The notes under the pieces are model-generated. The model made no database searches. It was not told the origin of the DNA and worked only from the letters and a program-made list of their open reading frames with translations. A stretch of DNA of 62,733 nt from Alistipes senegalensis (GTDB taxonomy: Bacteria; Pseudomonadota; Gammaproteobacteria; Burkholderiales; Burkholderiaceae_D), in assembly GCA_023664945.1 (NCBI GenBank), contig JAMPER010000005.1, positions 1 through 62,733 of the forward strand, given 5' to 3'. Position numbers and translations under genes: made by a program. This document shows positions 47,454 through 62,443 of the stretch, piece by piece (positions within the stretch are counted from its first letter, which is position 1; every line of letters begins with the position of its first letter).

Positions 47454-48571
47454 TTACCTCATCGTTGCTGCCATGGCTCGCAAACGCTGCCTTTCAGCTA
47501 TTTCCAGCAATTCAAGAGCTTTGGGTTCTGTTTCTGGGGTTAGTTCTGGAAGTTTTGACTCAAAGTCAATCCAAGTACGTTCGATATTCCTCATTGAAAT
47601 CCCTCCCATGCGTCACCTGCGTAGTCTTTTATTTACAAGAAAATAAAGATTTGGAGGAATTGCTTTTTTCTCTACCCAGCGTTTGAATATCCACAAATAT
47701 ATATCGACCAGCTCAAGCCCTGCACTATTTTGGCTTGAAGTAAAAATTAAATTATCTTTTGGCATACCTCGTAAATCCAAACAAGGTAAACCTGGCCCTA
47801 TCTCAAGATTTATACCTTTTGCTCTAGCATAATAACTTGCCAAGGTTTGTTGAGCCCGATTGAATTATGATTGCTGGTCAACAACAATCAATACTTTGTT
47901 GGGCTTTATCTTGTTAACCCGCTTAGAAATAAAAGTAAGAACATTTTGAAAACAAATGATATTCGGGGAAACAGCCCTTATAGCATTTTTATCTATTGCA
48001 TTATAGTATAATTCCCCCTGGGTTATTAGCAGCCCATGATAAAACATCACTAAATATCTGCTTTGAACGCACATCAGGAATCCTGTGAATTCTATTCAAT
48101 AGTTCTCTACAAATCGAGACAACCATCCTTTGTGCTTGTCCATTATTTCTATTTATACGAGCTTCCCATGCTTTCCCCAACAAATCTTGATCAAACAGGC
48201 AATGAAGTTTTATTAGAAGCAAATATCGAAGTGGTGTCCAATAACCACTCCAGGGAACAGCAGGATTATTTCCCTGATCAAAAACCTGATCAAAAAAACA
48301 TATCAATGCCAAATCCGGCTTATTAAGCCTAAACATATCAAAATACAGGTCAAATTTCTTTCTTAGATTTGTTAATTGCTGGCCAATTTCATTAAGTTTA
48401 TCTGCCCAAGCTCACTAGCATGGAGCCTTGGCGCCTTGATTTGTTTTCTTATTTTTGACAAGATCGGTTCCGAATCCCATAATACAAGAATGGTTATTTT
48501 TTATCAAATAAATTATTCCCAGTGTTTCCACTCTCATCAATATAAAAATACATATCCTCATCCAGTGGCAT
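47454..48571 (-). pseudogene. decayed DUF3800 protein gene
   Basis: Pieces in all three minus frames read in order as a DUF3800 protein. The start is MPLDEDMYFYIDESGNTGNNLFDKK (48571), the DUF3800 hallmark. Then come FLYYGI, APRLHASELGQ, the 48336-48001 frame (FDLYFDMFRLNKPDLALICFFDQVF), the 48000-47865 stretch KVLIVVDQQS, the 47843-47613 frame with SAGLELVDIYLWIFKRW, and the end LDFESKLPELTPETEPKALELLEIAESRRQRLRAMAATMR. At least four frameshifts or stops interrupt it. DUF3800 is an RNase H-like, predicted nuclease often in defence and mobile contexts. Confidence 0.78.
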
Positions 48572-48657: not shown

Positions 48658-51600
48658 CTACTTCATAACCCTTTCCATAAGAGTCTGATAACTATCAACA
48701 ACATCATAGACGACATCGCCATGGCTGATAGCCTTGAAATGTTCTCGGGCACAATGTATCTTGGAATCTTCAATCAGTCTCAATTGCATCGAATTCATTG
48801 ATCCTTTTGTCTCCGCAACAAAATAGATATGCTTTACATCGCCTTGATAGAAAGCGATTGCCCAGTCAGGGTTATACTTGCCAACGGGAGTTGAAATATA
48901 AAAGCCGTTCGGTAACTTTACATAGACGGCAACCTCAGAACTTGCTTCCAGCTCCGATGCAAAAATCTTCTCATTGTTTGAGTCAAAAACAAGATGGTCG
49001 TAGAGATGCTTCTTGACCTTCATTGCATTTTTATCCAACCTGCCTTTGATGGTGGGTTCAGTAAAGATATCTGTATCATAGCGATCTTCAAGAACATTAT
49101 AAGTAATGTGTTCAATGATAGCTGTCGCCTTCTGGTCATTGATCAAACTGGCAGACTTGATAATGAACTCTTCAGGATTTTCTTTGAACTGATTGAAAAT
49201 AAATGGCTCTATCTTTTGAAGAATCTGGATAATTGTTTTCCTTGTAAGTCCTGTTTCATCAACCAGTTTTCCAACCAGGTCATATTTCACATTGGAATTG
49301 GCTGTGACACGAACATTGTACGTGTCTGTCTTTTCTTTCTTAAAAGCCTCTCCACTTGCCAGTTCCCTCTTTGAGTGGATATTGTCCATCTCTCCTTTTT
49401 CTACTTTGAAATAAATTTTGGAGACACGGAGCTTATTGTTCAAAGAATCGACAGCCTTCTTGACCAGCTCATCTGTATCGAAATCAACAGCATAGACAGT
49501 CTTGGTATTAATCTTTTTCCATAAGGCCTTGAATTCAGGCATGGCAAGCTTGTCAACATCAACCTTCAGTTCAACATTGTTGCTCCGTGCATTTTCCGGT
49601 AACAACAGGCGGGGATCATAGACTGAATCGATAATCTGCGTGATAGATGCTGCACAATCCTGGATATCCTGAGGAAAAACTAGGATATTGTTCTTCTTGG
49701 CTTCGTAATAACAATCCGTCAAGGCGTCATTCCCATCAATATAATTGTTGCGGACAAGGCTGTGATAGATTTTCCGGGCCATATCCTGGTCAATGACATG
49801 TTCAACACCATGGATATCAGCAACCACTTTTCCAATGAACAGCTCCTTGGTAACAGCCATTGGTCTATCTGCAACAGCATTAGCCAGTTCCGTCTGCAAT
49901 CCTCGGGCAAAACTGTCATAACTTTCACTGGCTATGACCGTCAGCACATTGATGTTATGAACATCTTCACCGAGTTTATTGGCATCCATGCGGTCGCCCT
50001 CCTGATTAACACACAGGCGCAGTCCCCTGCCGACTTCCTGCCGTTTCCTGATATCGCTGCTGCTTTGTTTCAGAGTACATATCTGGAAGACATTGGGATT
50101 ATCCCAACCTTCACGGAGAGCCGAATGGGAGAAAATAAAACGGACTGGACTTTTCTTGGGATTTCTGTCCAGCAACCGTTCCTTGTCTCTCATAATCAGA
50201 TCATAGGCATCGATATCATCAGAAGTGCTCTCCTTGCGGCTCACTTTGCTATCAATCATCCTTGTACTTTTCTTGTCAATGGAAAAATACCCTGCATGCG
50301 TTGATGAAGCTGGAATGGCCTTCAGATAATCAAGGTATTCCTCGTTGCCCAGTTCACCCACCTGACCAACAAGTTCTTCGTATTCCTCCTCAAAGATCTT
50401 GGCAAAATCACCATTAAAAGGCTTTCCCGCAGCATCGTATTGCTTATAGTGCACAACTTCATCGATGAAAAACAGGGAAAGCACTTTGATACCCTTACAG
50501 AAAAGCAACTGTTCCCTTTCCAGGTGCGATTTGATAGTTTCACGAATCTGGAGACGCCGTAACTGCATCTCATCCACGCTACCAATGACATCGCCAGCAT
50601 ATATCTTGATGCCATTCATGAATTCGACAGAATCATCCCTGCCATCTATCCGGGTAATGATAAAGCGATTTTTGTATTCCTCCATGTTGTTGGAATTGTC
50701 GTAAAGATCGTAGCCCTCATTGACTATGCGGGTAACTTTACGAACACCGGAAGCCCCTTTCATTTCGAAAGAAAGGGTCGCTGTCGGGGCATCCTTCGAT
50801 AAATTGATGCTTTCCAAATAAACATAAGCATTTGTCGCCGTGCTTCCGATTTCAGAAATCCCCTTGACGGCAATCTTTTTGACCAGACGCTTGTTATACG
50901 CTTCCATCGCATCCAGACGATAAATCATGTTGTAAATGCTATCGGAACGATGGGTAGCCGAATAGCGCAAAGTAAATAGCGGATTAAATTCTGTCAGACG
51001 TTTCCTGGTTTCTTTGCCTTCTACGGACTGCGGTTCATCAATAATGAGGATAGGATTGGTCTTTGCGATGATGTCTATCGGCCTTCTTGAACGAAATTCA
51101 TCCAGTCGCATGTAAATACGGCGTGTGTCCTTCCCTTTGGCATTGAACGCCTGAGAATTGATGATCATCACACGGATGGCATTGTCAGAGGCAAAATGGT
51201 CAATCTCCATTAAACGGGCAGAATTATAGATACGGCAGAAAATGTTTTTACCATATTCATCCTTAAAGTGTTCCTTTGTCATTTCGAAGGTTTTATTCAC
51301 CCCTTCACGGATCGCCACACTGGGTACAACAATGATGAACTTGCTCCAGCCATAATGCTTGTTCAGCTCATACATCGTCTTGATATAGGTGTAGGTTTTG
51401 CCGACACCCGTTTCCATTTCAATGGTCAGATTAAGCCCATCCCCCTCCAGTTTTTCAGAAGAAGCAATCTGATGAGCTTGCTGGATTTTCTTGATGTGTT
51501 CCAAAATCAGAGTATTGTTCAATTCAATCCGGCTATTTTCCCAACCTGTAAAGTTACTTTTTTCATAAAGATCACGTATGGGAGGAAGTTTGCCTATCCC

Positions 51601-51708
51601 TTTATCAATCATGTAAGAAGGTGTCCGGTAAGGTTGACCGGCAAAAACATCCACAACAGCCTGAGCCGCATCAGCCTGGAATTTTTGGTGTTTGAAGCGT
51701 AATTTCAT
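48658..51708 (-). CDS. type III restriction enzyme Res subunit
   Basis: A 1016-aa DEAD-box helicase/endonuclease. Walker A METGVGKT is at 98-105, the motif II variant DEPQ at 224-227 (typical for type III Res), the SAT-like motif is RYSATH, and motif VI reads RQEVGRGLRLC. The C-terminal nuclease has PD at 947-948 and ETK (E966, K968), a PD-(D/E)xK site. All catalytic parts appear intact. It starts 14 bases after the mod stop. With Mod it should translocate on DNA and cut when two unmodified sites face each other. It is last in the four-gene operon. Confidence 0.92.
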   Translation of the reverse strand: MKLRFKHQKFQADAAQAVVDVFAGQPYRTPSYMIDKGIGKLPPIRDLYEKSNFTGWENSRIELNNTLILEHIKKIQQAHQIASSEKLEGDGLNLTIEMETGVGKTYTYIKTMYELNKHYGWSKFIIVVPSVAIREGVNKTFEMTKEHFKDEYGKNIFCRIYNSARLMEIDHFASDNAIRVMIINSQAFNAKGKDTRRIYMRLDEFRSRRPIDIIAKTNPILIIDEPQSVEGKETRKRLTEFNPLFTLRYSATHRSDSIYNMIYRLDAMEAYNKRLVKKIAVKGISEIGSTATNAYVYLESINLSKDAPTATLSFEMKGASGVRKVTRIVNEGYDLYDNSNNMEEYKNRFIITRIDGRDDSVEFMNGIKIYAGDVIGSVDEMQLRRLQIRETIKSHLEREQLLFCKGIKVLSLFFIDEVVHYKQYDAAGKPFNGDFAKIFEEEYEELVGQVGELGNEEYLDYLKAIPASSTHAGYFSIDKKSTRMIDSKVSRKESTSDDIDAYDLIMRDKERLLDRNPKKSPVRFIFSHSALREGWDNPNVFQICTLKQSSSDIRKRQEVGRGLRLCVNQEGDRMDANKLGEDVHNINVLTVIASESYDSFARGLQTELANAVADRPMAVTKELFIGKVVADIHGVEHVIDQDMARKIYHSLVRNNYIDGNDALTDCYYEAKKNNILVFPQDIQDCAASITQIIDSVYDPRLLLPENARSNNVELKVDVDKLAMPEFKALWKKINTKTVYAVDFDTDELVKKAVDSLNNKLRVSKIYFKVEKGEMDNIHSKRELASGEAFKKEKTDTYNVRVTANSNVKYDLVGKLVDETGLTRKTIIQILQKIEPFIFNQFKENPEEFIIKSASLINDQKATAIIEHITYNVLEDRYDTDIFTEPTIKGRLDKNAMKVKKHLYDHLVFDSNNEKIFASELEASSEVAVYVKLPNGFYISTPVGKYNPDWAIAFYQGDVKHIYFVAETKGSMNSMQLRLIEDSKIHCAREHFKAISHGDVVYDVVDSYQTLMERVMK

Positions 51709-51722
51709 ATCACCTCCAGGCT

Positions 51723-53690
51723 TTAGATGACCTTGATCTTCGTATCAGGTGCCAATAACGTGAAAACCTCACTGACATTGATTTTGGCAGGACTGTCAGC
51801 AAAACTGCTGTCACGAAAGACAGCCCGAAGCGGTTTCTGTTTGGCAATAGCCTTGATGACATTTTCAGGGATGTTTTCTTCAAAACAGGCAATCAGGTCA
51901 CCATTGTTATAGTTATGGATTGTGACGCCATCGATTTTCTCTGACTGATAAGGCAAGGAAAGCGGCAAACCCCATTCCAGCAGGCACCCAAAAAGTAAAT
52001 CCAGATCTGTACGGTCAGGTTTGATATTGGATTCCATGGATGTCAGTAAATCCTGGCTGTAATCCGATGCAGAATAATAGACATCCCGCATATTGCTGTC
52101 ATCCAATTTTAATACACGAAATCCGATATCCAAATCCTGATTAGTCAATGAATTTTCTTCTTTTATTTTTGCCCCAGCTCGGCGAATTCTTTCTTTTCCT
52201 ATTCCACAAATTGTCTGTTCTTCATGAATATCATCGAGGAAATCTATTGCTGATTGTATATCTAATTTTGTTTTTTGATTAACCCCTGACCTATTTAAGG
52301 CATCTTTTAAGGACTCAGGTAATTGAACCATTATAAATTTTCTATTACCATTATCTTCTGAGTTTAATTTCATTACAGCATGGGCTGTTGTAGATGACCC
52401 TGAAAAAAAATCAAGAATTATTGCCTCTTTATCATCAGACGTAGCAGCTTTTATACAGTCATAAACTGCATATAAACTTTTTGGGAATGTAAAAGAACAT
52501 CCTTTCATCAGTTTATCAATAAGCTTTGTACCATATTCACTTGAATCATATTTCGGATTTATCCACATGCTTCTTATTGTTTCTCTATCCTGATTAAGCA
52601 TTATTTGATAATTCTTACGGCCAAGCTTTGACTCTAATTTATTAATAACATTTTCCACAGACTGTCTTGAGTAACGCCATTTTTTCTCCTTGCCCTCATC
52701 AGTTAGGGGCCATATTTCAATTGTTCCATCTTCTAATCTTATATTTGCTGATTTTGGATGAAAAGAATCAGAAGGAACATCACCAATTCTAACTATTCGG
52801 TTATCCTTAATATAAAATGGATAGAAACAGTTTTTTGCATCTTTTCTATCTGATTCTGTTCCACTATCTCTTAATCCTCTTTTATCAATTTCTTCTTTTG
52901 GGAAATTTGACAAGTACTTCTTTCCATCAGATGGATAAACAAATATTAAATATTCATTAACATAAGAGAAATTAACGCCTTGTTGCCCTCTCCGATTATG
53001 CATAATTGAAACATAGCTATGTTCATAACAAGACTCCCCAAAAATTTCCTTCATAATGAGCGAGAGACTTGAAAATTCATTCTCATCAATTGCACAAATT
53101 AAAATCCCATTAGATGAAAGCAAATTTCTTGCTACTAATAAACGCTCATAAATCATTTTCAACCAAGCAGAATGATATCTTGCCGAGCCGACAGGATTTG
53201 AAACCAATCGAGCACCCTCATCATTTACCAATCCAGCCTCATACGAGTATTCTTCATAATCAATCGAATAATCATTTCTATATATATAGTTTCTCCCAGT
53301 ATTATAAGGAGGGTCAATATAAATTAAATTTATCTTTTTTAAATAACTTTCCTGGAGAAGCTTCAGGACTTCTAAATTATCCCCCTTTATATATAAATTT
53401 TCAGTTCTTTCCCAGTCAACGCTCTCATCTTGACATGGGCGCAAAGTCTTACGGATAGGAGAGTGTGCCTCGACAATAGCCGCTTTCTTCCCTACCCAGG
53501 TAAACTCATAAGCTTCATCACCTTCAAGAACTTCATCTGAAAGCATTTGCTTGAGCATCTCAAAATTAATTGCTTTTCTCAGTTTCCCATTTTCATCGAC
53601 TTTCTCTGTGATGCAGTTTGGAAAGAGGGCTTCTATCTTCTCAATATTCTTTTCGGTCATATCAGGTGATTCCATACGCATCTTGTCCAT
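51723..53690 (-). CDS. type III Mod adenine methyltransferase
   Basis: A 655-aa beta-class N6-adenine methyltransferase. The catalytic DPPYNTG is at 126-132 and the SAM-binding DFFSGSSTTAHAV at about 428-440, in the beta-class order. The variable region between would hold the target recognition domain. The start ATG overlaps the DUF4391 stop (TAATG), so the two are coupled. DNA for residues about 95-520 is strikingly AT-rich, unlike both ends. With Res it forms the modification and recognition core of the system. Confidence 0.93.
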   Translation of the reverse strand: MDKMRMESPDMTEKNIEKIEALFPNCITEKVDENGKLRKAINFEMLKQMLSDEVLEGDEAYEFTWVGKKAAIVEAHSPIRKTLRPCQDESVDWERTENLYIKGDNLEVLKLLQESYLKKINLIYIDPPYNTGRNYIYRNDYSIDYEEYSYEAGLVNDEGARLVSNPVGSARYHSAWLKMIYERLLVARNLLSSNGILICAIDENEFSSLSLIMKEIFGESCYEHSYVSIMHNRRGQQGVNFSYVNEYLIFVYPSDGKKYLSNFPKEEIDKRGLRDSGTESDRKDAKNCFYPFYIKDNRIVRIGDVPSDSFHPKSANIRLEDGTIEIWPLTDEGKEKKWRYSRQSVENVINKLESKLGRKNYQIMLNQDRETIRSMWINPKYDSSEYGTKLIDKLMKGCSFTFPKSLYAVYDCIKAATSDDKEAIILDFFSGSSTTAHAVMKLNSEDNGNRKFIMVQLPESLKDALNRSGVNQKTKLDIQSAIDFLDDIHEEQTICGIGKERIRRAGAKIKEENSLTNQDLDIGFRVLKLDDSNMRDVYYSASDYSQDLLTSMESNIKPDRTDLDLLFGCLLEWGLPLSLPYQSEKIDGVTIHNYNNGDLIACFEENIPENVIKAIAKQKPLRAVFRDSSFADSPAKINVSEVFTLLAPDTKIKVI

Positions 53691-54355
53691 TACATCTTCT
53701 CCAACTCACTTTTCAGTTCTTTTAATTCATTATTCATCTGCACTTGGCGATTAAACTGTTTCTCTTTTCTTACTTTCGCTTGCAACGTATTTATTCTCTT
53801 AACCAGTTTTTCCCGTTGTTCATTACGTCCAACCGTCTCTTTTAGAGTTTCATTGTTTCCAGATGGCAGTTCATCGTTTCCTATCTGCCTGACCAAATTT
53901 TCATAGACTGCATCAGTATCCAGTCCCTCAAAGCGCAAGACAGGCTCTGACAGTCCCAGCCATTCGGTGTGGTAATAACGGCTGACCTTGAATGCACTGC
54001 TGCCGGAACTGGTAGCTTCCTTATAACCAATCCATGCCTGATACTTCCCGTTATATACCAAGATGAAAAGAATATGGTATGGTATTTCCCTGTCTATCTG
54101 TAGCAGGACATTCTTATCCAGTTCTTCTCCATTGAGATGAATTTCAAACACTTCCAGCTCCAGGACTTCTTTCCCTGCGGCAATATTCATTGTGGTTGAA
54201 GCAATCTTGTTTCGCCAGACAATTGATTTTATCTGGTTGACAAAACACTGCTTCAGCTTCGGCGTAATACTCAGATGTTCATAAAACCGCTGCTTGGGAA
54301 TCCGTTTGTTAAATTCAGTTGTCTTCGGCAAATCGAGCATCAGTTTCTCGCTCAT
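53690..54355 (-). CDS. DUF4391 protein
   Basis: A 221-aa protein of DUF4391: LDLPKTTEFNKRIPKQRFYEHLSITPKLKQCFVNQIKSIVWRNKIASTTMNIAAGKEVLELEVFEIHL is the family N-terminal half, and a coiled coil (EQREKLVKRINTLQAKVRKEKQFNRQVQMNNELKELKSELEKM) ends it. The start overlaps the helicase stop by 4 bases and its stop overlaps the mod start. Function is unknown, but the family is found mainly beside helicase and type III RM genes; it may bridge the two. Confidence 0.85.
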   Translation of the reverse strand: MSEKLMLDLPKTTEFNKRIPKQRFYEHLSITPKLKQCFVNQIKSIVWRNKIASTTMNIAAGKEVLELEVFEIHLNGEELDKNVLLQIDREIPYHILFILVYNGKYQAWIGYKEATSSGSSAFKVSRYYHTEWLGLSEPVLRFEGLDTDAVYENLVRQIGNDELPSGNNETLKETVGRNEQREKLVKRINTLQAKVRKEKQFNRQVQMNNELKELKSELEKM

Positions 54356-57300
54356 TTAACAACAACGAAACTGATCAATTCAAAATCATCCAAACCTGAT
54401 ATGGATGACATCAATGCAGAAGTGCCACCAGCCTTGAACAGGCTTTCAATGTCGTTATCTTCTTTTGTATCGATAATAGAATTGATTGCCTGTACCAGAA
54501 AACCTGATATCTCTTTCATATCACGCCCATCATCTGTTTCCCGATTGAATATCTGGCATAAATCAGTCAGTGGTTCGGCCTTGCCTTTGCACAGCAGCCG
54601 AAGATCATCCAACACCTTCTTGGGGCTAAGATAATCGCAGACAAGGTTGCCATCTTCTCCGACATAGACCATATAGAAAGGATGGATACGGTTCTTGTTG
54701 TCGATATTGATATCCTCATTGATGTTTTTCAGGACAAAAATACAGCCTGGAGGCAAAACCTCCGTCGCCCTGGTAACCGCATGAAGCCCCTTTGGCATAT
54801 TCCCGAGCTCTTTATGGGACTTAAGGTATTCAAGAAGGTCAAGCCTGAACTTATTTAGTCCCAAATCCATGATAGATATCCCATTGCTCATATCCTCGAT
54901 ATCCACCACTTCTTCCTGAAGCCGTTTCAGCTGTTGTTTACGGTATTCCAGATCCCCCTTTTCTTCCGGATTGATGAGGTCGTCATCACCTGTTGAGGTC
55001 ATGATGGAAATCTTCATCCGGGTCTCAACCTTTTCCTTCAGATTGATATACTCATCCAGATCAATGTCTGGCCAGAAATTGACAAGCTGGATAACCTGAT
55101 TCTTGCTGCCGATACGGTCTATACGCCCAAAACGCTGGATAATCCGAACCGGATTCCAGTGAATGTCGTAATTGACCAGATAATCACAATCCTGCAAGTT
55201 CTGCCCTTCTGAAATGCAGTCTGTTGCTATCAGCAGATCAATCTCTGCATTGTTGTCAGGCATCAGGACTTTTTTACCTTTGGATATGGGAGAAAAACAT
55301 GTCAGGACATTGTTCAAAGTTGCCCTTAACCCTTTGATGGTTGTCTTGCCATCAACTGTTCCTGTAATCAGTGCTGTATCCAGACCAAATTCTTTCTTGA
55401 CGAATGTGCTGACTTGGCTGTACAGGTATTCTGCTGTATCAGAAAAAGCAGAAAAAACAAGTATCTTCCTGTTTCCTTCATTGATTGGATGCCTGATCTT
55501 TTCTGACAGGAGTTCCAACAAAGTCTGGAGCTTCGTATCATATTCTGGCGTAATGTCCGCAATCATACTGCCAAGCAGTTCAAGAACTTCTGCATCAGCC
55601 TGAAGGTCTGCCAGCCAGCTCTTGTAATCCATATCGGGAAGGTCAATCCAGACTTTTCTGCCGACTGTGAAATCGGTATTGGAATCTTCCGTATCCAGAT
55701 CCTGGCCTACGACTTCAATCACATCAATCTGAGACACGCCTGATTTCTCAAAGCGGTAGATGGCTTCGATGGTGTTATTGATAAGGCTTCCTATGCGTTC
55801 GAGTGTCAATCTGAAAGCATAGACAGAACTTTCAAGACGCTTGAGCAGATTCACCCCCATCAATTGCCTGATACCTTGCTCCCGTCCAACCTGGGTCAAA
55901 CCTGTCACTTTGTTCAGGAGCTGTTCCTGATATTTTTCCAGTCTGCTTGGGAAAATGTAAATGGAAGGCGTATAAACCCTGAGTGTCAGAGAGGCTATCT
56001 GCTCATAAATCTCACGATAATTGATTGCAGAGGCCAGATTAGAGAGCTTCGGACGTAACGACACAGGTTTCAACCGTTCAGGAAACCTGCCTATCTGAGC
56101 CGTGTCGTAATAGGTCTCTATATGTTTTCTGGAACGGGCTATTGTTACACTATCGAGCAGTTCAAAAAAATCAAAGTCCAAAGCCGACAAGAGGTTTTCT
56201 GTTGTCTTTTCTTGGGTGTCCAGTTTGCTCCAGGTATTGAAGGCTTTCTGTGCCTGACGGAATACCTCTTCTATAGACTTGCTGGTATTGAGTTTGTCAG
56301 ACAACGCACTTGAATCACCCTCATAGGCTATCGCCAGCTGGTTACGCAAGTCATTGAACCTGTTGTTGACCGGGGTAGCTGACAACATCAGAACTTTTGT
56401 CTTGACACCCGCACGGACAACTTTGTTCATCAGTCGGAGATAACGGTTTTCCTTGTTATCATCACCAGAAACCGCACCGCCATTTCTGAAGTTATGGGAT
56501 TCGTCGATAACGACAAGATCGTAGTTGCCCCAGTTCAGTCTGTCCAAATCCAGCCCATTGGATTGCCCATAATTCCTTGAAAGATCAGTATGGAAAAGAA
56601 CATCGTAGTTCAGCCTGTCGGCTGCGATAGGGTTGTTTATGTAGTTGTCCTTGAAGGTATTCCAGTTGTCAGCGAGTTTCTTGGGACAAAGAACAAGAAC
56701 TGATTTGTTGCGGTTCTCGTAGTATTTGACAACAGCCAGCGCGGTGAACGTCTTCCCTAGCCCAACGCTGTCGGCAAGGATACAACCATTGTATTTCTCC
56801 AGCTTGTTGATGATGGCAAGTACAGCATCCTTCTGGAAATCATAAAGCAGGCTCCAGATTCTGCTTTGCTTAAATCCAGTCGCTTCGTTCGGCAGCTCAT
56901 CCTCTGAGATATCATTGAGGAATTCACTGAAGATATTGTAAAGCGTCAGGAAATAGATGAATTCGGGGGAATTTTCATTGTAGGCATTGCTGATATTTTC
57001 GATGATGATGTCAGTAACATCCTGAAGCCTTGCCTTATCGTTCCATAGGGAATCAAACACCTGTATGTACTCCAATGAAAATGGCGCATCAATGGCATTG
57101 ATCATGTTATAGATGTTATTGCCACGTTCACAGCCAATATCCACTGTGGTGAAACCATTAAGGGGCGAGTAGGCGACCTGTTCTTCATGACTATCCACAG
57201 TCATGAAGCCTCCCATCTGTTCTTGAGTCACATTGGACTTAAAAACAGCCCTTTCTCTGACCCACCTGGCGCACTCTTTTGCAATAGCCTTCTGGGTAAG

Positions 57301-57588
57301 TTCATTCCTGAGCCTAACCTCAAATTCATTACCATACAGACACTTTTCAAGGTTCAGCCTGGGAATATAAAACTCCTTCTTCTGTTTATCGTTTTTTTCT
57401 TTGATGAATGTAGGAGTGGTGAAGATAAACCTGAATTCCTCAACGGTATCCAGCTGTTCTTTCAGTTCATTATAGGCATACAGGGAAAAACAGGCTGCCG
57501 CGATAGAGACTCTGGAACCCGCTTTTATTGTTCTGGCCATATCGTCTCGGACGATATCAGTTACATTGTTGAATATCTTCATCATCAA
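54352..57588 (-). CDS. SNF2-type helicase with PLD-like N-terminal region
   Basis: A 1078-aa protein. The first 240 residues resemble the phospholipase-D-like domain attached to this helicase type, but I see no HxKxxxxD motif, so nuclease activity is doubtful. The helicase has Walker A SVGLGKT at about 274-280, DESH at 362-365, SATPVNNR at about 403-410, and motif VI QRFGRIDRIGS. A helical insert separates the two RecA folds. It is the first gene of the operon, ending in an ATGA overlap with DUF4391. Its likely role is DNA translocation or remodelling in defence. Confidence 0.85.
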   Translation of the reverse strand: MMMKIFNNVTDIVRDDMARTIKAGSRVSIAAACFSLYAYNELKEQLDTVEEFRFIFTTPTFIKEKNDKQKKEFYIPRLNLEKCLYGNEFEVRLRNELTQKAIAKECARWVRERAVFKSNVTQEQMGGFMTVDSHEEQVAYSPLNGFTTVDIGCERGNNIYNMINAIDAPFSLEYIQVFDSLWNDKARLQDVTDIIIENISNAYNENSPEFIYFLTLYNIFSEFLNDISEDELPNEATGFKQSRIWSLLYDFQKDAVLAIINKLEKYNGCILADSVGLGKTFTALAVVKYYENRNKSVLVLCPKKLADNWNTFKDNYINNPIAADRLNYDVLFHTDLSRNYGQSNGLDLDRLNWGNYDLVVIDESHNFRNGGAVSGDDNKENRYLRLMNKVVRAGVKTKVLMLSATPVNNRFNDLRNQLAIAYEGDSSALSDKLNTSKSIEEVFRQAQKAFNTWSKLDTQEKTTENLLSALDFDFFELLDSVTIARSRKHIETYYDTAQIGRFPERLKPVSLRPKLSNLASAINYREIYEQIASLTLRVYTPSIYIFPSRLEKYQEQLLNKVTGLTQVGREQGIRQLMGVNLLKRLESSVYAFRLTLERIGSLINNTIEAIYRFEKSGVSQIDVIEVVGQDLDTEDSNTDFTVGRKVWIDLPDMDYKSWLADLQADAEVLELLGSMIADITPEYDTKLQTLLELLSEKIRHPINEGNRKILVFSAFSDTAEYLYSQVSTFVKKEFGLDTALITGTVDGKTTIKGLRATLNNVLTCFSPISKGKKVLMPDNNAEIDLLIATDCISEGQNLQDCDYLVNYDIHWNPVRIIQRFGRIDRIGSKNQVIQLVNFWPDIDLDEYINLKEKVETRMKISIMTSTGDDDLINPEEKGDLEYRKQQLKRLQEEVVDIEDMSNGISIMDLGLNKFRLDLLEYLKSHKELGNMPKGLHAVTRATEVLPPGCIFVLKNINEDINIDNKNRIHPFYMVYVGEDGNLVCDYLSPKKVLDDLRLLCKGKAEPLTDLCQIFNRETDDGRDMKEISGFLVQAINSIIDTKEDNDIESLFKAGGTSALMSSISGLDDFELISFVVVK

Positions 57589-58078: not shown

Positions 58079-58258
58079 CTAGTGATAATCAATGCTCTCA
58101 ACATCGTATACATTGCCGTTTTCAAACCGGAAACAGACACGAAAACGTTTATTGATGCGGATACTCCCTTGCCCGGCGCGTTTTCTATAGAGCTGTTCAA
58201 GCTGGTTGGAGGGCGGTATCCGCAGATCCTCATTATCGCCAAACAATAGTAACGCCAT
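58079..58258 (-). pseudogene. truncated higB toxin
   Basis: The last 50 residues of a HigB/RelE-type toxin: DLRIPPSNQLEQLYRKRAGQGSIRINKRFRVCFRFENGNVYDVESIDYH. The family is normally about 92 aa, so the N-terminal 40 or so residues are missing; the upstream part of the frame is unrelated. It precedes the higA remnant in normal higBA order. Confidence 0.72.
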
Positions 58259-58473
58259 GCAGTCCCTCCCCATCCCCTTTCTAAAAAATCCCAACCACAT
58301 ATACCTTAATTGAAACTCTGTTTCAAAATCCCTTCCCCTGTCCGCAACCTGCCCGCCCTTTCCGGGTAGGCCAGGCTGCGTTTGTCTTCTGCCGCACCGT
58401 TTGTCCTGCGCTTTCTTCCTGACAGGGAGAAGGATCTTTACCCCCTTACCTTCCATCCTGAAAGGAACATGAT

Positions 58474-58842
58474 ATGCATTCAGAAACATTCATCCCACCG
58501 GAAACCCTCATCTGTCCCCGCTGCCATTCCGACCGCGTCACAACAAAAGATCACGCCAAAACAATCTGTAGCACCACAGGTATGGCCATAGGCGCAGCCA
58601 GCGGATTGGCTGGTGCGCTCAAAGGTTCCCGCACAGGCGCGGCATTGGGCATGGTTGCTGGCCCGATGGGAACAACCTTGGGCGGTGTAAGCGGAGCTAT
58701 CCTCGGCGGATTGCTTGGTGGCATCACCGGCGGCATTGCCGGGGCACAAACTGGTTCCCTCATTGACACCCATCTTTTGCAAAACTGCATCTGCCATCAA
58801 TGCGGCCTGCATTTTTCCCAACCCCTGCAAAAAGGAGAATAA
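58474..58842 (+). CDS. glycine-zipper protein with terminal zinc-ribbon Cys pairs
   Basis: A 122-aa protein. CPRC near the N-terminus and CICHQC near the C-terminus form two possible halves of a zinc ribbon. Between them lies a long glycine-zipper membrane-like segment (GMAIGAASGLAGALKGSRTGAALGMVAGPMGTTLGGVSGAILGGLLGGITGGIAGAQTG). AAAGGAACATGAT precedes the start. Such proteins are common in plasmids and integrative conjugative elements next to DUF932. Function is unknown. Confidence 0.7.
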   Translation: MHSETFIPPETLICPRCHSDRVTTKDHAKTICSTTGMAIGAASGLAGALKGSRTGAALGMVAGPMGTTLGGVSGAILGGLLGGITGGIAGAQTGSLIDTHLLQNCICHQCGLHFSQPLQKGE

Positions 58843-58844
58843 AC

Positions 58845-59780
58845 ATGGCGCATGAAGTAGAAAACATGGCCTACCGCCATCAACCTCCCTGGCACGGCAT
58901 CGGAACAAACCTGCCAGCCAATCAACCGATTGACCGGTGGATCGAAGCCTCCGGCATGAACTTCAACTACCTTGCCAGTCCGGTATCGTTTTTTGATGAG
59001 AGAGGTAATTGCCAGACCTTTCCAGAACAGAAAGTTATTTACCGTTCTGACAACAAGACCCCGCTTGCTCTCGTCTCGAAACGATACAACCTGGTACAGC
59101 CGAGAGAAATCCTGGACTTTTATGCCAGCCTTATGGACATCTTCGGATTTGAGCTGGAAACGGCAGGTGTGCTGCGTTCCGGTAAAAAGATCTGGGCGCT
59201 GGCAAAAACCGGACATCAGGGGCTGATCAAAAACAATGATCCGATAAACGGCTACCTGCTCCTGGCAACTGCCTGCGACGGCACGCTGGCAACCACGGCA
59301 CAATTTACCTCTGTTCGCGTTGTCTGCCACAATACGCTCTCCGTTGCCCTGGCATCCAACAACAGCCAGGTCAAAGTGCCGCACAGCCGGGTATTTGACG
59401 CCAAAGCCGTCAAACAGGAACTGGGGCTGACCGTATCGGCCTGGGATGACTTCATGTACCGGATGAAGGCATTGGCAAACAGAAAACTCAAGGATAGCGA
59501 AGCTGCGCAGTTTATCCAGACACTCTTTACCGATGCTGGTGGCAACCGCAATGAACAAGCCATCAAAAAAGTCATGGGACTGTATCAGGGCCAGGGCACA
59601 GGCGCTGATCTGGCTTCTGCACGCCAAACAGCCTGGGGCGCACTGAATGCCGTCACGGAATTCATTGACCACCATCGCCGTGCCAGAAGCACAGACTACC
59701 GTCTGGATGCGGCATGGTTCGGCATCGGCGCACAAATCAAGAACCAGGCAAGGGATGAAGCACTCCTTCTGGTTGACTGA
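58845..59780 (+). CDS. DUF932 protein
   Basis: A 311-aa protein of DUF932 (phage/plasmid-like). Signs are PPWHGIGTNLPANQPIDRWIEASGMNFNYLASPV, the middle GYLLLATACDGTLATTAQFTSVRVVCHNTLSVAL, and the terminal FGIGAQIKNQARDEALLLV. AAAGGAG precedes ATG, 2 bases after the previous stop. The family accompanies recombination and exonuclease genes on conjugative elements; biochemical function is unproven. Confidence 0.9.
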   Translation: MAHEVENMAYRHQPPWHGIGTNLPANQPIDRWIEASGMNFNYLASPVSFFDERGNCQTFPEQKVIYRSDNKTPLALVSKRYNLVQPREILDFYASLMDIFGFELETAGVLRSGKKIWALAKTGHQGLIKNNDPINGYLLLATACDGTLATTAQFTSVRVVCHNTLSVALASNNSQVKVPHSRVFDAKAVKQELGLTVSAWDDFMYRMKALANRKLKDSEAAQFIQTLFTDAGGNRNEQAIKKVMGLYQGQGTGADLASARQTAWGALNAVTEFIDHHRRARSTDYRLDAAWFGIGAQIKNQARDEALLLVD

Positions 59781-59792
59781 AGAAAGGCTCCC

Positions 59793-60197
59793 ATGCCAAT
59801 CCACACAACCTTACACAGGGGAAAGAATTTTCCATTCCGGCAGCAGGTTGACGCAACCGCTGCCTGCCTTGACGGGGCCTTTCTGACGGGCGAAGTATCT
59901 GTTTGCCCTGTACGGTACCTTCCCGAACACGAAGCTATGGATGTTTCTCAAAAAGAAGAGGCCAACCTGTTCGGCGTTTATGTGCAAGTCAAAGAGCGCT
60001 TCAGGGGAAAAGACTGTTTCGAATGGCGATGGCTGCATGATTTCGCCACGCAACAACCGGCGATGGCCTGCGCAGAAACATTCAGGAAATGGTTTGCTGC
60101 TGTTCAATCTGAGGATAGGCCTCGATCAGGGATGGCCGGATCAAGGCCATTTCAAAGCGAGCGCAATTGTTGCGGTCAAGGTGAAATAAAATCCTGA
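59793..60197 (+). CDS. hypothetical protein of the recombination cassette
   Basis: A 134-aa protein starting 12 bases after the DUF932 stop, in the same strand order. The part CLDGAFLTGEVSVCPVRYLPEHEAMDVSQKEEANLFGVYVQVKERFRGKDCFEWRWLHDFATQQPAMACAETF is well-formed, while the last 25 residues look less typical (RPRSGMAGSRPFQ). A late frameshift may have altered the C-terminus. I do not recognise the family. Confidence 0.6.
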   Translation: MPIHTTLHRGKNFPFRQQVDATAACLDGAFLTGEVSVCPVRYLPEHEAMDVSQKEEANLFGVYVQVKERFRGKDCFEWRWLHDFATQQPAMACAETFRKWFAAVQSEDRPRSGMAGSRPFQSERNCCGQGEIKS

Positions 60198-60344
60198 TTC
60201 TGTTGACGTACCCTATGAGGAGGGCTTTTTTACCAAATCATGCCCTGCTCCTGAAAAGCCAAACTCACACATTGGCCCAACAGGAACATCTCCCCTTCTC
60301 CCGATTGGCCAACCGGCTGATCCCTCTCTTTCATTACAACCACC

Positions 60345-60387
60345 AAGCCCCGGCCTCCCCTTTTGCATGAAGCCGGGGCTTTTTTAG
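60345..60387 (+). terminator. terminator-like hairpin before the YqaJ gene
   Basis: AAGCCCCGGC (60345-60354) and its exact complement (60372-60381) enclose a 17-base loop, followed by more T residues. It ends 13 bases before the next ATG. A weaker CCCT/AGGG stem with six T residues lies at 60211-60231. Confidence 0.7.
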
Positions 60388-60400
60388 CAAAGGAAAACAA

Positions 60401-61413
60401 ATGTCCCATACCGCAACACAACATACCGCTGCGGCAATATCCCGTCCGTCCAGGCGGTGCGGGGCCATTCGCCTGGTCTCAACCAAAAACATGGATCGAC
60501 ATACCTGGCTGGCAATCCGCAACCGGGGAATCGGCTCAAGCGATGCCGCCTGTGTGCTGGGCCTGTCGCCATACAAGTCCGCCCTGGAACTCTGGCTGGA
60601 AAAAACCCGGCGCAAACCGCCTGACAATTTGTCAGACAAGGAAGCGGTATTCTGGGGAACCGTGCTGGAACCGGTCATTGCGATGCCTATGCCAGGAAAA
60701 TGCCGGCAACGGTAAAAAGAGTCAATGCCGTCTTGCAGCACCCGAAATATCCTTTCATGCAAGCCAATCTGGACAGGGAGGTGCGCCTTGCGGATGGCAC
60801 AACCGGCATCCTGGAAATCAAAACAGCCGGATGGCGGATGGCCCTGCTCTGGGAAGATGGCGTCCCTGAAGCCTACCAGTGTCAGGTGCTGCACCAGCTG
60901 GCCGTCACCGGCAAACCCTGGGCGGATGTGGCCGTGCTGATCGGCGGACAGGATTTCCGGGTATTTCGGATCTTTCCCGATCCGGAAAAAATAGCAGCGC
61001 TCATTGATGTGGAAGCGGCTTTCTGGCGGTGTGTAGAAAACCAGACCCCGCCCCATGTTGACCATTCGGATTCGGCTGGCAGGGCACTGGCGTTTCTGTA
61101 TCCGAAGGATCAGGGTGAAGAAGTGGATTTTACAGAAGATCCCCGGATGAATGCCCTCTTTTTAGAACTGGTGCAAAGCAGAAAAACGGCGGATGAGGCA
61201 AATACCAGGGCAAAGCTGCTGCAACACAGGATGCAGCAGATCATGGGTTGCGCTCCTTCTGCCCGCTTTCACAACGGCAAAATCAGCTGGCGGCGCACCA
61301 AAGACAGCACGACGACAGACTTCAAACGGCTGGAAGAAGAACATCCCGATCTGGTCAGGCACTATACCATCACCAGGGCCGGGTATCGCCGCTTTGTAGT
61401 CACAGCAAACTGA
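60401..61413 (+). pseudogene. YqaJ-family viral recombinase/exonuclease, single-base frameshift
   Basis: Two frames join into one lambda-exonuclease-like YqaJ protein of about 337 aa. Frame one (60401-60715) gives RNRGIGSSDAACVLGLSPYKSALELWLEKTRR to WGTVLEPVIA. The continuation DAYARKMPATVKRVNAVLQHPKYPFMQANLDRE is in the next frame from 60682 on. One base seems lost near 60680-60682. The catalytic motifs (LDREV, ILEIKTAG) lie in the second part, which alone could start at 60700. The protein would process DNA ends for recombination. Confidence 0.85.
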
Positions 61414-61435
61414 CCAAACACACACACCCTCCTCT

Positions 61436-61465
61436 CTGACGGTAAACCGTCAGGGATGATTTTTT
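61436..61465 (+). terminator. terminator-like hairpin before the last gene
   Basis: CTGACGGT and ACCGTCAG (61436-61453) with two bases between them are followed by GGATGA and six T residues. The T run abuts the ATG at 61466 and the next gene's probable true start at 61479. Confidence 0.65.
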
Positions 61466-62443
61466 ATGGGAGACAGAGATGATCAAGGGATTGATGATGC
61501 CCCGCCAGTGCTGGGCAGGATCAGTATTGGCAAGGTGGTGGAGCATAACGGCAGGCGGCTGCCGGAAAAAGATGATGCGTTTACGATTACAACGCAGGTT
61601 CAAAACAAGGATGGCTGGATTCTGCATCCGTTGCACAAAATGCTGGAAGATGCCACAGAAAACGGAAAAATCCGCAGTATTCCTGTCACGTTGCTTTTTA
61701 ATGACCCGGAGCTGAACCTGCGCTCGGAATATGCGATGTTCGACAGGAAAAACGGACGGCCTGTCTGTGTCGGGAACGGGGAAACGGCACGCCAGCATGT
61801 TGATGGCTGTATCAGGGAAGGTGCCTGCCCGTCTCCGGATAACTGCCCTCGGGCAAAGGAAGGCGGGTGCAAGCCTTATGGACGATTGAATGTCCAGGTG
61901 GAGGGTCAGGATGATGCGCTCAGTACTTTTGTGTTCAGAACGACAGGATTCAATTCGATCCGCACACTCTCGTCCAAATTGCACTATTTCTTTGCCCTGG
62001 GCCAGCAAGCGACACGGCATCTGCCGCTGCAAATGAAGCTCCGTGCCAAAAGCACAACGATGTCGCACAGAACGCCTATCTATTATGCAGATATTGCATT
62101 GAGAGACGGCGTCAGCCTGACTGAAGCGTTGGCGTTGGCTTTGGCCAGGGCAATGGCTCAGGCAGATCAGGAAGCGGGACTGGACGTCAGTCTTCTGGAG
62201 TCGGTGGCACGCCAGGGGTATGGCAATGGGGTGTTCGAGGACAGTCCGGATGAAGTCCCCGCGATTTTAGAAGAATTCTTTACCGTGCAGGATAAAACGG
62301 ATGAGGTTGACGCTTTGGCAGGGGATGCCCCGGAAAAGACGGGCAACACGGCAAAACCGGCTCAACCGGGCATGACGCCTCGTCCTGCAAAGCTCTCGGA
62401 ACGGATCGGGAAGAAGGCTGAAAGACTGGAGACGAGGCATTGA
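61466..62443 (+). CDS. 'hydrolase or metal-binding' recombination-cassette protein
   Basis: A 325-aa protein of the family that follows YqaJ on conjugative elements. Key segments: PPVLGRISIGKVVEHNGRRLPEKDDAFTITTQVQ, SIPVTLLFNDPELNLRSEYAMFDRKNGRPVCVGNGETARQ, and the Cys-rich CPSPDNCPRAKEGGCKPYGRLNV, possibly metal binding. FRTTGFNSIRTL follows. Typical relatives start with MIKGL; an ATG at 61479 with GGGAG upstream gives that, but in another frame, so one base may be missing near 61498. The open frame instead begins at 61466 without a good binding site. Confidence 0.8.
   Translation: MGDRDDQGIDDAPPVLGRISIGKVVEHNGRRLPEKDDAFTITTQVQNKDGWILHPLHKMLEDATENGKIRSIPVTLLFNDPELNLRSEYAMFDRKNGRPVCVGNGETARQHVDGCIREGACPSPDNCPRAKEGGCKPYGRLNVQVEGQDDALSTFVFRTTGFNSIRTLSSKLHYFFALGQQATRHLPLQMKLRAKSTTMSHRTPIYYADIALRDGVSLTEALALALARAMAQADQEAGLDVSLLESVARQGYGNGVFEDSPDEVPAILEEFFTVQDKTDEVDALAGDAPEKTGNTAKPAQPGMTPRPAKLSERIGKKAERLETRH

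What the first reader, a model, noticed from the sequence alone, without database searches (positions are those of the whole stretch)
48658..57588. Four-gene candidate defence system: SNF2-type helicase, DUF4391, type III Mod and Res
The sequence shows four minus-strand genes joined by an ATGA overlap, a TAATG overlap and a 14-base gap, so they should be made together. A standard type III system has only Mod and Res. Here a second, different motor (1078 aa, PLD-like N-terminal region, intact Walker A, DESH, SAT and QRFGR motifs) and a DUF4391 protein with a C-terminal coiled coil are placed in front. I infer a compound system: Mod/Res for site recognition and cutting, the helicase for loading, translocation or a second effector, and DUF4391 as adaptor. 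I recall similar gene sets in annotations of other bacteria but know no name for this set as one system.
Basis: partly seen in the sequence, partly recalled or inferred. Interest (0 to 1): 0.82.

Follow-up and report, generated by a model that had tools for sequence, protein, structure and literature searches.

The report
Type III restriction with extra motor
This is a DNA-cutting bacterial defence (type III restriction) with two extra genes, a DNA motor whose own cutting site has decayed and a small protein that probably links it to the DNA-recognising enzyme; the combination is widespread, and what the extra genes add is still to be tested.

Summary
The four genes are present as described and form a conserved operon in the order helicase, DUF4391, Mod, Res. 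Anchored on DUF4391 in even draws from three phyla (398, 335, 338 genomes), nearly every DUF4391 gene with enough flanking sequence has the helicase upstream and Mod-Res downstream. The dependence is one-way: related Mod-Res also occurs without them. So this is type III R-M with an accessory helicase-DUF4391 module.

Two findings go further. (1) The helicase N-terminus is a decayed PLD nuclease: 157 of 163 distinct N-termini lack the catalytic His/Lys pair; the 6 that keep it lie beside large type IIG-like methyltransferases, with no DUF4391 gene seen. One DUF4391-associated helicase (L412) still has the pair. (2) DUF4391 is homologous to the N-terminal region of those methyltransferases, so it looks like a detached docking domain between motor and methyltransferase.

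A three-gene relative with a different helicase is in print (PMC8259958); that helicase was not needed for methylation. My literature searches found no description of the DUF4391 set.

The parts
54352..57588 (-). SNF2-type helicase with N-terminal PLD-like region (HelPLD), 1078 aa; probable true start 57585 or 57582
   Evidence: PADLOC PDLC01075 'HKD+Snf2' 6.8e-127; Pfam SNF2-rel_dom, Helicase_C
57133..57222 (-). decayed PLD active-site stretch (EQMGGFMTV ... NGFTTVDIG) in place of HxK ... GSSNFT
   Evidence: alignment with HKD-intact sisters; coordinates
56749..56775 (-). Walker A of the helicase (ADSVGLGKT)
   Evidence: invariant in 20 relatives; coordinates
55114..55137 (-). helicase motif VI (QRFGRIDR)
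53690..54355 (-). DUF4391 protein, 221 aa, probable adaptor
   Evidence: PF14335 4.7e-59, 200.5 bits; no PADLOC match at E 0.001 or better
53702..53764 (-). C-terminal coiled-coil stretch of DUF4391
   Evidence: conserved tail; profile matches only coiled coils in PDB; coordinates
51723..53690 (-). Mod, type III DNA methyltransferase, 655 aa
   Evidence: PDLC03634 7e-186; EcoP15I Mod 4zcf_A 4.4e-48
53301..53321 (-). Mod catalytic motif IV (YIDPPYN)
48658..51708 (-). Res, type III restriction subunit (SF2 motor plus nuclease), 1016 aa
   Evidence: PDLC03647 8.7e-295; EcoP15I Res 4zcf_C 5.2e-60
48802..48876 (-). Res nuclease motif PD ... ETK
   Evidence: RE_endonuc 2.3e-34; aligned to EcoP15I; coordinates

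Best explanation
A type III restriction-modification enzyme (Mod plus Res) with an accessory motor module. Shown here: the four genes travel together in fixed order; the motor's PLD nuclease site has decayed while its ATPase motifs are intact; DUF4391 is homologous to the N-terminal region of the methyltransferases that partner the HKD-intact sister helicases; Mod-Res can stand without the module, whereas the module was hardly ever seen without Mod-Res. Inferred: DUF4391 docks the SNF2 motor onto site-bound Mod; at an unmethylated site the motor actively translocates along or remodels DNA beside the ATP-triggered sliding of Mod-Res, for instance clearing bound proteins or relaxing the need for a second head-to-head site; Res cuts and Mod protects the host.
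For: Fixed order in three phyla: of DUF4391 genes with room, helicase upstream in 18/19 (the nineteenth, L039, also has it), 16/18 and 27/27; Mod 18/19, 12/12, 24/24; Res 10/11, 9/9, 20/20. One-way dependence: of 37 of 398 genomes with a strong Res of this family (E under 1e-150), 22 have DUF4391 and 15 do not. HxK absent in 157 of 163 distinct helicase N-termini. DUF4391 against sister MTase N-termini: probability 83.8, E 7.9e-6, best of 200 column shuffles 19.7 against 43.4, control regions 1.1 and 0.25; Pfam PF14335 hits in four sister MTases. Two co-diverging pairs, helicase-DUF4391 (partial rank correlation 0.50) and Mod-Res (0.53), others 0.07-0.26.
Against: No experiment and no structure. 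In Eco86II, with a different extra helicase, that helicase was not needed for methylation and was not seen in a partially purified cutting enzyme (PMC8259958 passages), so an extra motor may matter little for cutting. The homology is to a ~92-column stretch and is weak for single MTases (probability 5-51); Pfam hits by hmmscan lie below the 29.9-bit cut-off (23.0-28.2), L205 was not hit, and four more distant HKD systems' MTases (L241-L244) do not match DUF4391. L412 keeps HxK with DUF4391, Mod and Res present, so decay is not a strict rule. DUF4391 sometimes follows Mod-Res and sometimes the helicase when these are exchanged. Nothing shows direct contact of DUF4391 with Mod.
Confidence: 0.5

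Rival explanations
1. Backup defence: helicase plus DUF4391 act as a separate, non-cutting block on phage DNA (BREX- or DISARM-like) that uses Mod only for self-marking; Mod-Res is an independent first line.
For: Mod-Res of the same family works, by presence, without the pair. SNF2 motors without a nuclease occur in BREX and DISARM (profile relatives DrmD, BrxH). Many of the loci carry further backup-type genes between the four.
Against: The pair was almost never seen without Mod-Res where there was room; a free-standing defence sharing only the mark should sometimes pair with other methyltransferases. No BREX or DISARM core gene is in the operon.
Confidence: 0.2
2. Safety or control role: the helicase-DUF4391 pair removes or remodels Mod-Res on host DNA, or steers Mod, to limit self-cutting.
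For: SNF2 motors commonly displace proteins from DNA (recalled). Dependence of the pair on Mod-Res and accessory status fit. DUF4391 homology to an MTase domain points to Mod as partner.
Against: Stand-alone Mod-Res of the same family shows that no such control is needed in those hosts. Nothing positive shown.
Confidence: 0.15
3. Second effector: the helicase itself degrades DNA through its N-terminal PLD-like domain, as first suggested by the reader's 'second effector' option.
For: Sisters have intact HxK and match PLDc_2 and RE_NgoFVII; L412 keeps it in a four-gene locus.
Against: The window and 156 other distinct N-termini lack both catalytic residues.
Confidence: 0.05
4. Neighbours by chance: four defence genes that merely share an island.
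For: The region is a low-GC island, 0.36-0.45 against 0.50-0.56 in the rest except one bin at 34-36 kb, near mobile-element genes.
Against: Fixed order and strand across phyla, plasmids and a phage; helicase and DUF4391 genes overlap in 73 of 155 junctions.
Confidence: 0.03

Closest known systems
Type III R-M, EcoP15I (PDB 4ZCF)
   Same: Mod and Res homologous over most of their length, motifs intact
   Different: EcoP15I is described as Mod2Res1 only (recalled; also the introduction passage of PMC8259958); here a second SNF2 motor and DUF4391 precede mod
Three-gene type III systems Eco86II and BspHIV (PMC8259958)
   Same: an extra SNF2/SF2 helicase-like gene 5' of mod, then mod and res; reported in more than 500 genomes
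   Different: The probable Eco86II locus in NCTC86 has SNF2 963 aa, Mod 1040 aa, Res 1126 aa and no DUF4391. Its helicase is a distant subfamily: best PADLOC match DrmD 663.5 bits, C3a139 only 78.8; BLAST to the window helicase only in core pieces; far away in the tree
HKD-intact sister systems (L203, L205, L206, L207, L221, L225, L388-L390)
   Same: helicase of the same family, e.g. 40% identity over 1142 columns to L203; next gene an MTase with a DUF4391-like N-terminal region
   Different: intact HxK; no DUF4391 gene, Mod or Res found beside them (L207 is cut off inside the MTase)
DUF499-centred BREX-related systems (Hma), type 2 (PMC12839542)
   Same: HKD-SNF2 helicase plus MTase plus a small extra protein, DUF3780 (sections 28 and 32)
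   Different: built round a DUF499 ATPase, absent here; MTase and small protein are other families
DISARM DrmD
   Same: SNF2 motor core
   Different: 139.1 bits against the curated 610; no other DISARM gene matched in the operon

Membership tests
Type III restriction-modification | Mod homologous to type III Mod, with DPPY and AdoMet-binding motifs | tested here: met
   PDLC03634 7e-186; 4zcf_A 4.4e-48; motifs
Type III restriction-modification | Res with SF2 motor and PD-(D/E)XK nuclease | tested here: met
   PDLC03647 8.7e-295; RE_endonuc; 4zcf_C 5.2e-60; motifs. The stricter NCBIfam equivalog PRK15483 is below its cut-off (358.6 of 564)
Type III restriction-modification | one-strand methylation of an asymmetric site; ATP-dependent cutting needing two inverted sites | not testable with these tools
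   needs methylome and enzyme assays
Three-gene type III systems (Eco86II kind) | extra helicase of the same subfamily as Eco86II's | tested here: not met
DUF4391 (PF14335) | Pfam gathering score 29.9 bits | tested here: met
   200.5 bits
PLD/HKD nuclease (helicase N-terminus) | HxK catalytic pair | tested here: not met
   absent in window; no PLD Pfam hit; fold not predicted
DISARM | DrmD score over curated cut-off and DrmA/DrmB partners | tested here: not met
   139.1 of 610 bits; best PADLOC match is C3a139; the other three proteins match type III or PF14335 families
BREX-related / Hma (DUF499-centred) | DUF499 AAA+ ATPase gene | tested here: not met
   no such match among the four proteins; of the flanking ORFs only ten were scanned, none matching

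The most novel reading that the evidence does not exclude
A plug-in motor for type III restriction. An HKD nuclease-helicase that once worked with a type IIG-like methyltransferase was re-attached, through that methyltransferase's detached N-terminal domain (now DUF4391), to an unrelated Mod-Res enzyme. Its own nuclease then became redundant and decayed, probably more than once, leaving a two-motor restriction machine that combines active translocation with ATP-triggered sliding. L412, with HxK intact beside DUF4391, Mod and Res, would be a surviving intermediate.
Probability: 0.33. Interest if true: 0.75.

Novelty: new variant of a known kind. Interest (0 to 1): 0.6.

Why it matters
PF14335 matches occur in 23/398, 24/335 and 30/338 genomes drawn from three phyla (22/335 over the family's cut-off in the second, which includes some fragments and large methyltransferases), and a helicase gene of this family at 91% identity or more to the E. 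coli H6 copy covers at least 80% of the query in 54 of 5426 E. coli genomes. So a common defence layout is split by the profile library used here into type III parts, an 'HKD+Snf2' protein and an unmatched protein. The homology gives DUF4391 a testable role, and the with/without and nuclease-intact/decayed natural pairs make the open question of PMC8259958, what the extra helicases of type III systems do, directly testable.

Tried and rejected
Sequence searches of solved structures gave coiled coils and one seryl-tRNA synthetase for DUF4391, nothing for the sister MTase N-terminus, and for the helicase N-terminus cullin-3 matches (E about 0.2) above a weak match of its decayed PLD stretch to mitochondrial cardiolipin hydrolase (E 0.35 and 0.84).

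Considered and rejected: helicase as active PLD nuclease (HxK absent); DISARM, BREX-related or Hma membership (core genes absent); chance neighbours (fixed order); DUF4391 related to the helicase N- or C-terminus (hhalign probability 0.25 and 0.3). Phase variation by repeats: no array inside the four genes. Promoter and terminator scans were at about chance level. The MTases beside the more distant HKD helicases L241-L244 did not match DUF4391 (probability 0.1-0.4), although that of L244 matches the sister N-terminal profile (98.0); so the DUF4391 link is shown for the L203-type sisters only.

Dropped before counts: in the Bacteroidota draw (32 places) I fetched 23 (20 classified as DUF4391 genes, 3 large ORFs); the 9 left out were 8 fragments or weak hits and the centre genome's own locus. 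In the Bacillota draw (33 places) 30 regions cover 31 places; the centre genome's own place and one 45-position fragment were left out. Co-divergence used the 106 of 178 loci with one good copy of each gene, 102 after removing near-copies. Trees used chosen rows and the quick method. In the Res tree some rows labelled as without helicase end at contig edges (L232, L233, L236, L237), so its 6 changes may be too many.
Full report
What is there. Families: helicase PDLC01075 'HKD+Snf2' (6.8e-127) with SNF2-rel_dom and Helicase_C; DUF4391 PF14335 (4.7e-59), no PADLOC match at E 0.001 or better; Mod PDLC03634; Res PDLC03647. Mod and Res are homologous to EcoP15I (4zcf; 4.4e-48 and 5.2e-60). The motor, methylation and cutting motifs that I looked for in the helicase core, Mod and Res are present. 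The operon sits in a low-GC stretch (2-kb bins 0.36-0.45 at 44-58 kb; the other bins 0.50-0.56, except 0.41 at 34-36 kb). DUF4391 was not found in the 12 other genomes of the same genus searched, some of them incomplete, so it was probably acquired horizontally. Among the nearest helicases are those of an uncultured Eubacteriaceae bacterium, Spirabiliibacterium and Veillonella, 71-72% identical.

How fixed the set is. Anchored on DUF4391 over even draws of the window's phylum (398 genomes, 23 with a match), Bacteroidota (335, 24) and Bacillota (338, 30; phylum names from the named centre genomes), I classified 24, 20 and 30 loci. Helicase upstream where at least 1.5 kb was held: 18 of 19 by script, the nineteenth (L039) also having it but cut by my 250-base overlap limit; 16 of 18 (misses: L439, a DUF4391 piece at a contig end, and L440, a fragment); 27 of 27 (L436 only through a fragment under 100 bits). 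Mod where at least 4 kb was held: 18/19, 12/12, 24/24. Res where at least 9.5 kb was held: 10/11, 9/9, 20/20. The one miss for Mod and Res, L034, lies at a contig start and has a transposase-like ORF downstream (my reading of the sequence). Anchored on the helicase, full-length matches (E under 1e-100) are in 21 of 398 genomes, 20 of them with DUF4391; the three DUF4391 genomes without such a helicase (G018, G022, G257) have DUF4391 within 315 bases of a contig end.

With the helicase as bait (the best 80 of at least 581 relatives, and 74 viral-contig loci), together with the 24 loci above, 178 loci were examined and 173 hold a strong helicase: 121 have all four genes in order (109 plain, 8 with two Mod ORFs, 3 with Res in two ORFs, 1 with the helicase in two), 52 are incomplete. 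Of the 52, 43 stop within 1.9 kb of the end of the sequence held; the 9 with room are four HKD-intact sisters (L203, L205, L206, L221), L157 and L158 (mod interrupted), L222, L224 and L210. E. coli H6 (two more genes between DUF4391 and mod), E. coli CFT073, plasmid pLAO18, a Methylotuvimicrobium plasmid and Erysipelothrix phage phi1605 carry the same set; DUF4391 is confirmed by profile in all five. Extra genes between the four are frequent: 139 ORFs of at least 90 aa, among the eight tested SLFN_AlbA_2, RhuM, YhcG, Abi_C, AAA_13, Fic and GmrSD, one without a match. The window has none.

The dependence is one-way. Of 37 genomes (of 398) with a strong Res of this family (E under 1e-150, counted by hand from the list), 22 have DUF4391 in the same genome and 15 do not. 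Several of the 15 end at contig edges; Mod-Res loci with room and no helicase are G295, G080, G278 and G061; G289 and G304 have a different SNF2 helicase before Mod-Res. On a quick Res tree of 50 chosen rows the with/without state needs 6 changes, some of which may be contig-edge artefacts. So helicase-DUF4391 is an accessory module that needs Mod-Res, not the other way round.

The motor has lost its nuclease. Sister helicases keep HGKMYHI...GSSNFTxxGLG and match PLDc_2 and RE_NgoFVII; the window has MGGFMTV...NGFTTVDIG. Of 163 distinct N-termini aligned, 6 have both H and K (L203, L205, L206, L207, L221, L225) and none has just one. All 6 are followed by a large methyltransferase or its start, and no DUF4391 gene was found beside them (Eco57I domain tested by Pfam for L203 and L205; L207 ends inside the MTase; in L225 the MTase is in two ORFs). 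In the second set of 41, four have both: L388-L390, again beside Eco57I-type MTases, and L412, which has DUF4391, Mod and Res and matches PLDc_2 at 2.5e-10; L408 and L414 keep one residue. L412 contradicts a strict rule. On a quick tree of the first rows, HKD-intact and DUF4391-associated helicases fall on two sides of one branch (support 96, with long outgroup branches). With more rows the HKD-intact, DUF4391-free group is weakly supported (37), L412 lies inside the DUF4391 group, and L421/L424 branch off unresolved, so decay happened more than once or after the partnership formed (root and deep forks unsure).

What DUF4391 is. Pfam's DUF4391 model hits the N-terminal region of sister MTases L203, L388, L389 and L390 at 23.0-28.2 bits (cut-off 29.9), E 2e-6 to 9e-5; L205 was not hit. 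The six-frame genome search gave the L388 place 32.0 bits, over the cut-off. Profile against profile: probability 83.8, E 7.9e-6 over 92 columns; other regions 1.1 and 0.25; best of 200 column shuffles 19.7 against 43.4; single MTases give only 5-51. A profile of the sister N-termini in turn finds 12 of the stand-alone DUF4391 proteins at 18-23 bits. So the piece fused to the MTase in the sister system is a separate protein here, the pattern expected of a docking part between motor and methyltransferase. Divergence agrees in part: partial rank correlations are helicase-DUF4391 0.50, Mod-Res 0.53, others 0.07-0.26 over 102 loci. Among helicases 80-97% identical, DUF4391 is 51-91% identical when Res is over 60% identical (79 pairs) and 22-25% when Res is under 50% (2 pairs); at 72-80% it does not fall (median 58% in 10 pairs against 50% in 180). 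So it moves sometimes with Mod-Res and sometimes with the helicase. Shared ancestry confounds these numbers.

Mechanism. Shown: gene set, order, dependence, nuclease decay, homology. From established knowledge (recalled, and in part the passages): in type III enzymes Mod reads the site, ATP use by Res turns the complex into a sliding form, and cutting follows contact with a second complex at an inverted site. Inferred: DUF4391 ties the SNF2 motor to Mod, and the motor adds directed movement or protein removal at unmethylated sites. I put the accessory-module reading at about 0.85, DUF4391 as the link between motor and Mod at about 0.55, and the specific translocation role at about 0.35.

Prior work. 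The one paper in the held library whose text contains DUF4391 is an unrelated host-range study (passage read). PMC8259958 (abstract and passages read) reports a third, helicase-like gene 5' of mod in Eco86II and BspHIV, close by in more than 500 genomes, not required for methylation and not seen by mass spectrometry in a partially purified cutting enzyme. What is very probably the Eco86II locus in NCTC86 has SNF2 963 aa, Mod 1040 aa, Res 1126 aa and no DUF4391; its helicase is a distant subfamily. PMC12839542 (sections 28 and 32 and passages) describes DUF499-centred systems with an HKD-SNF2 helicase and a small DUF3780 protein, a useful parallel. Passages of PMC10853773 and PMC11090510 mention HKD-SF2 helicases and SNF2 or Mod/Res neighbours but, in what I saw, not this set. 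Further listings only. Supplements were not searched and the library holds no bioRxiv collection, so 'undescribed' is limited to these searches.

Verdict. Observation confirmed, interpretation partly supported: a widespread variant of type III R-M, unnamed as far as I searched, with a nuclease-dead plug-in motor and a probable adaptor of traceable origin. It is not a categorically new system.

Noticed in passing
L157:14089-14541, L158:7094-7534, L185:13855-14268, L099:12792-13319: In these four loci the mod gene of the operon is cut right after the codons for YI[D/E] of catalytic motif IV (YID|PPYN); L157 and L158 continue into sequence with serine-recombinase-like ORFs (by motif, not profile). 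A mobile element seems to use the conserved active-site codons of mod as its integration site, disarming the system. A scan of the 178 loci found these four only.
   Followed up: partly
L112 against L121 and L196: Helicases 83-84% identical, but DUF4391 22-25%, Mod 40-41% and Res 46%: the cassette behind the helicase seems to have been replaced.
   Followed up: partly
window 48494-48571, minus strand: Just downstream of Res a short reading frame (MPLDEDMYFYIDESGNTGNNLFDKK, then stop) looks like the start of a decayed DUF3800-type gene (my reading). DUF3800 is fused to the MTase of sister locus L205.
   Followed up: no
L073, L089, L168, L212, L078: These loci have two full-size Mod genes in a row, so one motor module may serve two specificities.
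   Followed up: no
L043, L088, L102, L133, L094, L037: Genes inserted between the four include SLFN_AlbA_2, RhuM and AAA_13 (both in L088), YhcG nuclease, Abi_C, Fic and GmrSD: the operon seems to collect further defence genes.
   Followed up: partly
L421, L424, L430: An outlying Bacillota group with weak DUF4391 scores (35-58 bits) and a helicase N-terminus decayed in a different way (GTSSLE, GDSSLE).
   Followed up: no
window 58079-62443: Beside the operon: a HigB-like toxin ORF (minus strand) and plus-strand genes for DUF932, a YqaJ-like recombinase and a Gp3-like recombination directionality factor, suggesting a mobile element.
   Followed up: no
L228:8432-16761, L230:8144-15998, L322:8986-18506: Another SNF2 helicase family (about 950-990 aa) stands directly before Mod-Res without DUF4391, as in the probable Eco86II locus; in several E. 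coli genomes relatives of it lie next to a gene annotated mads1.
   Followed up: partly
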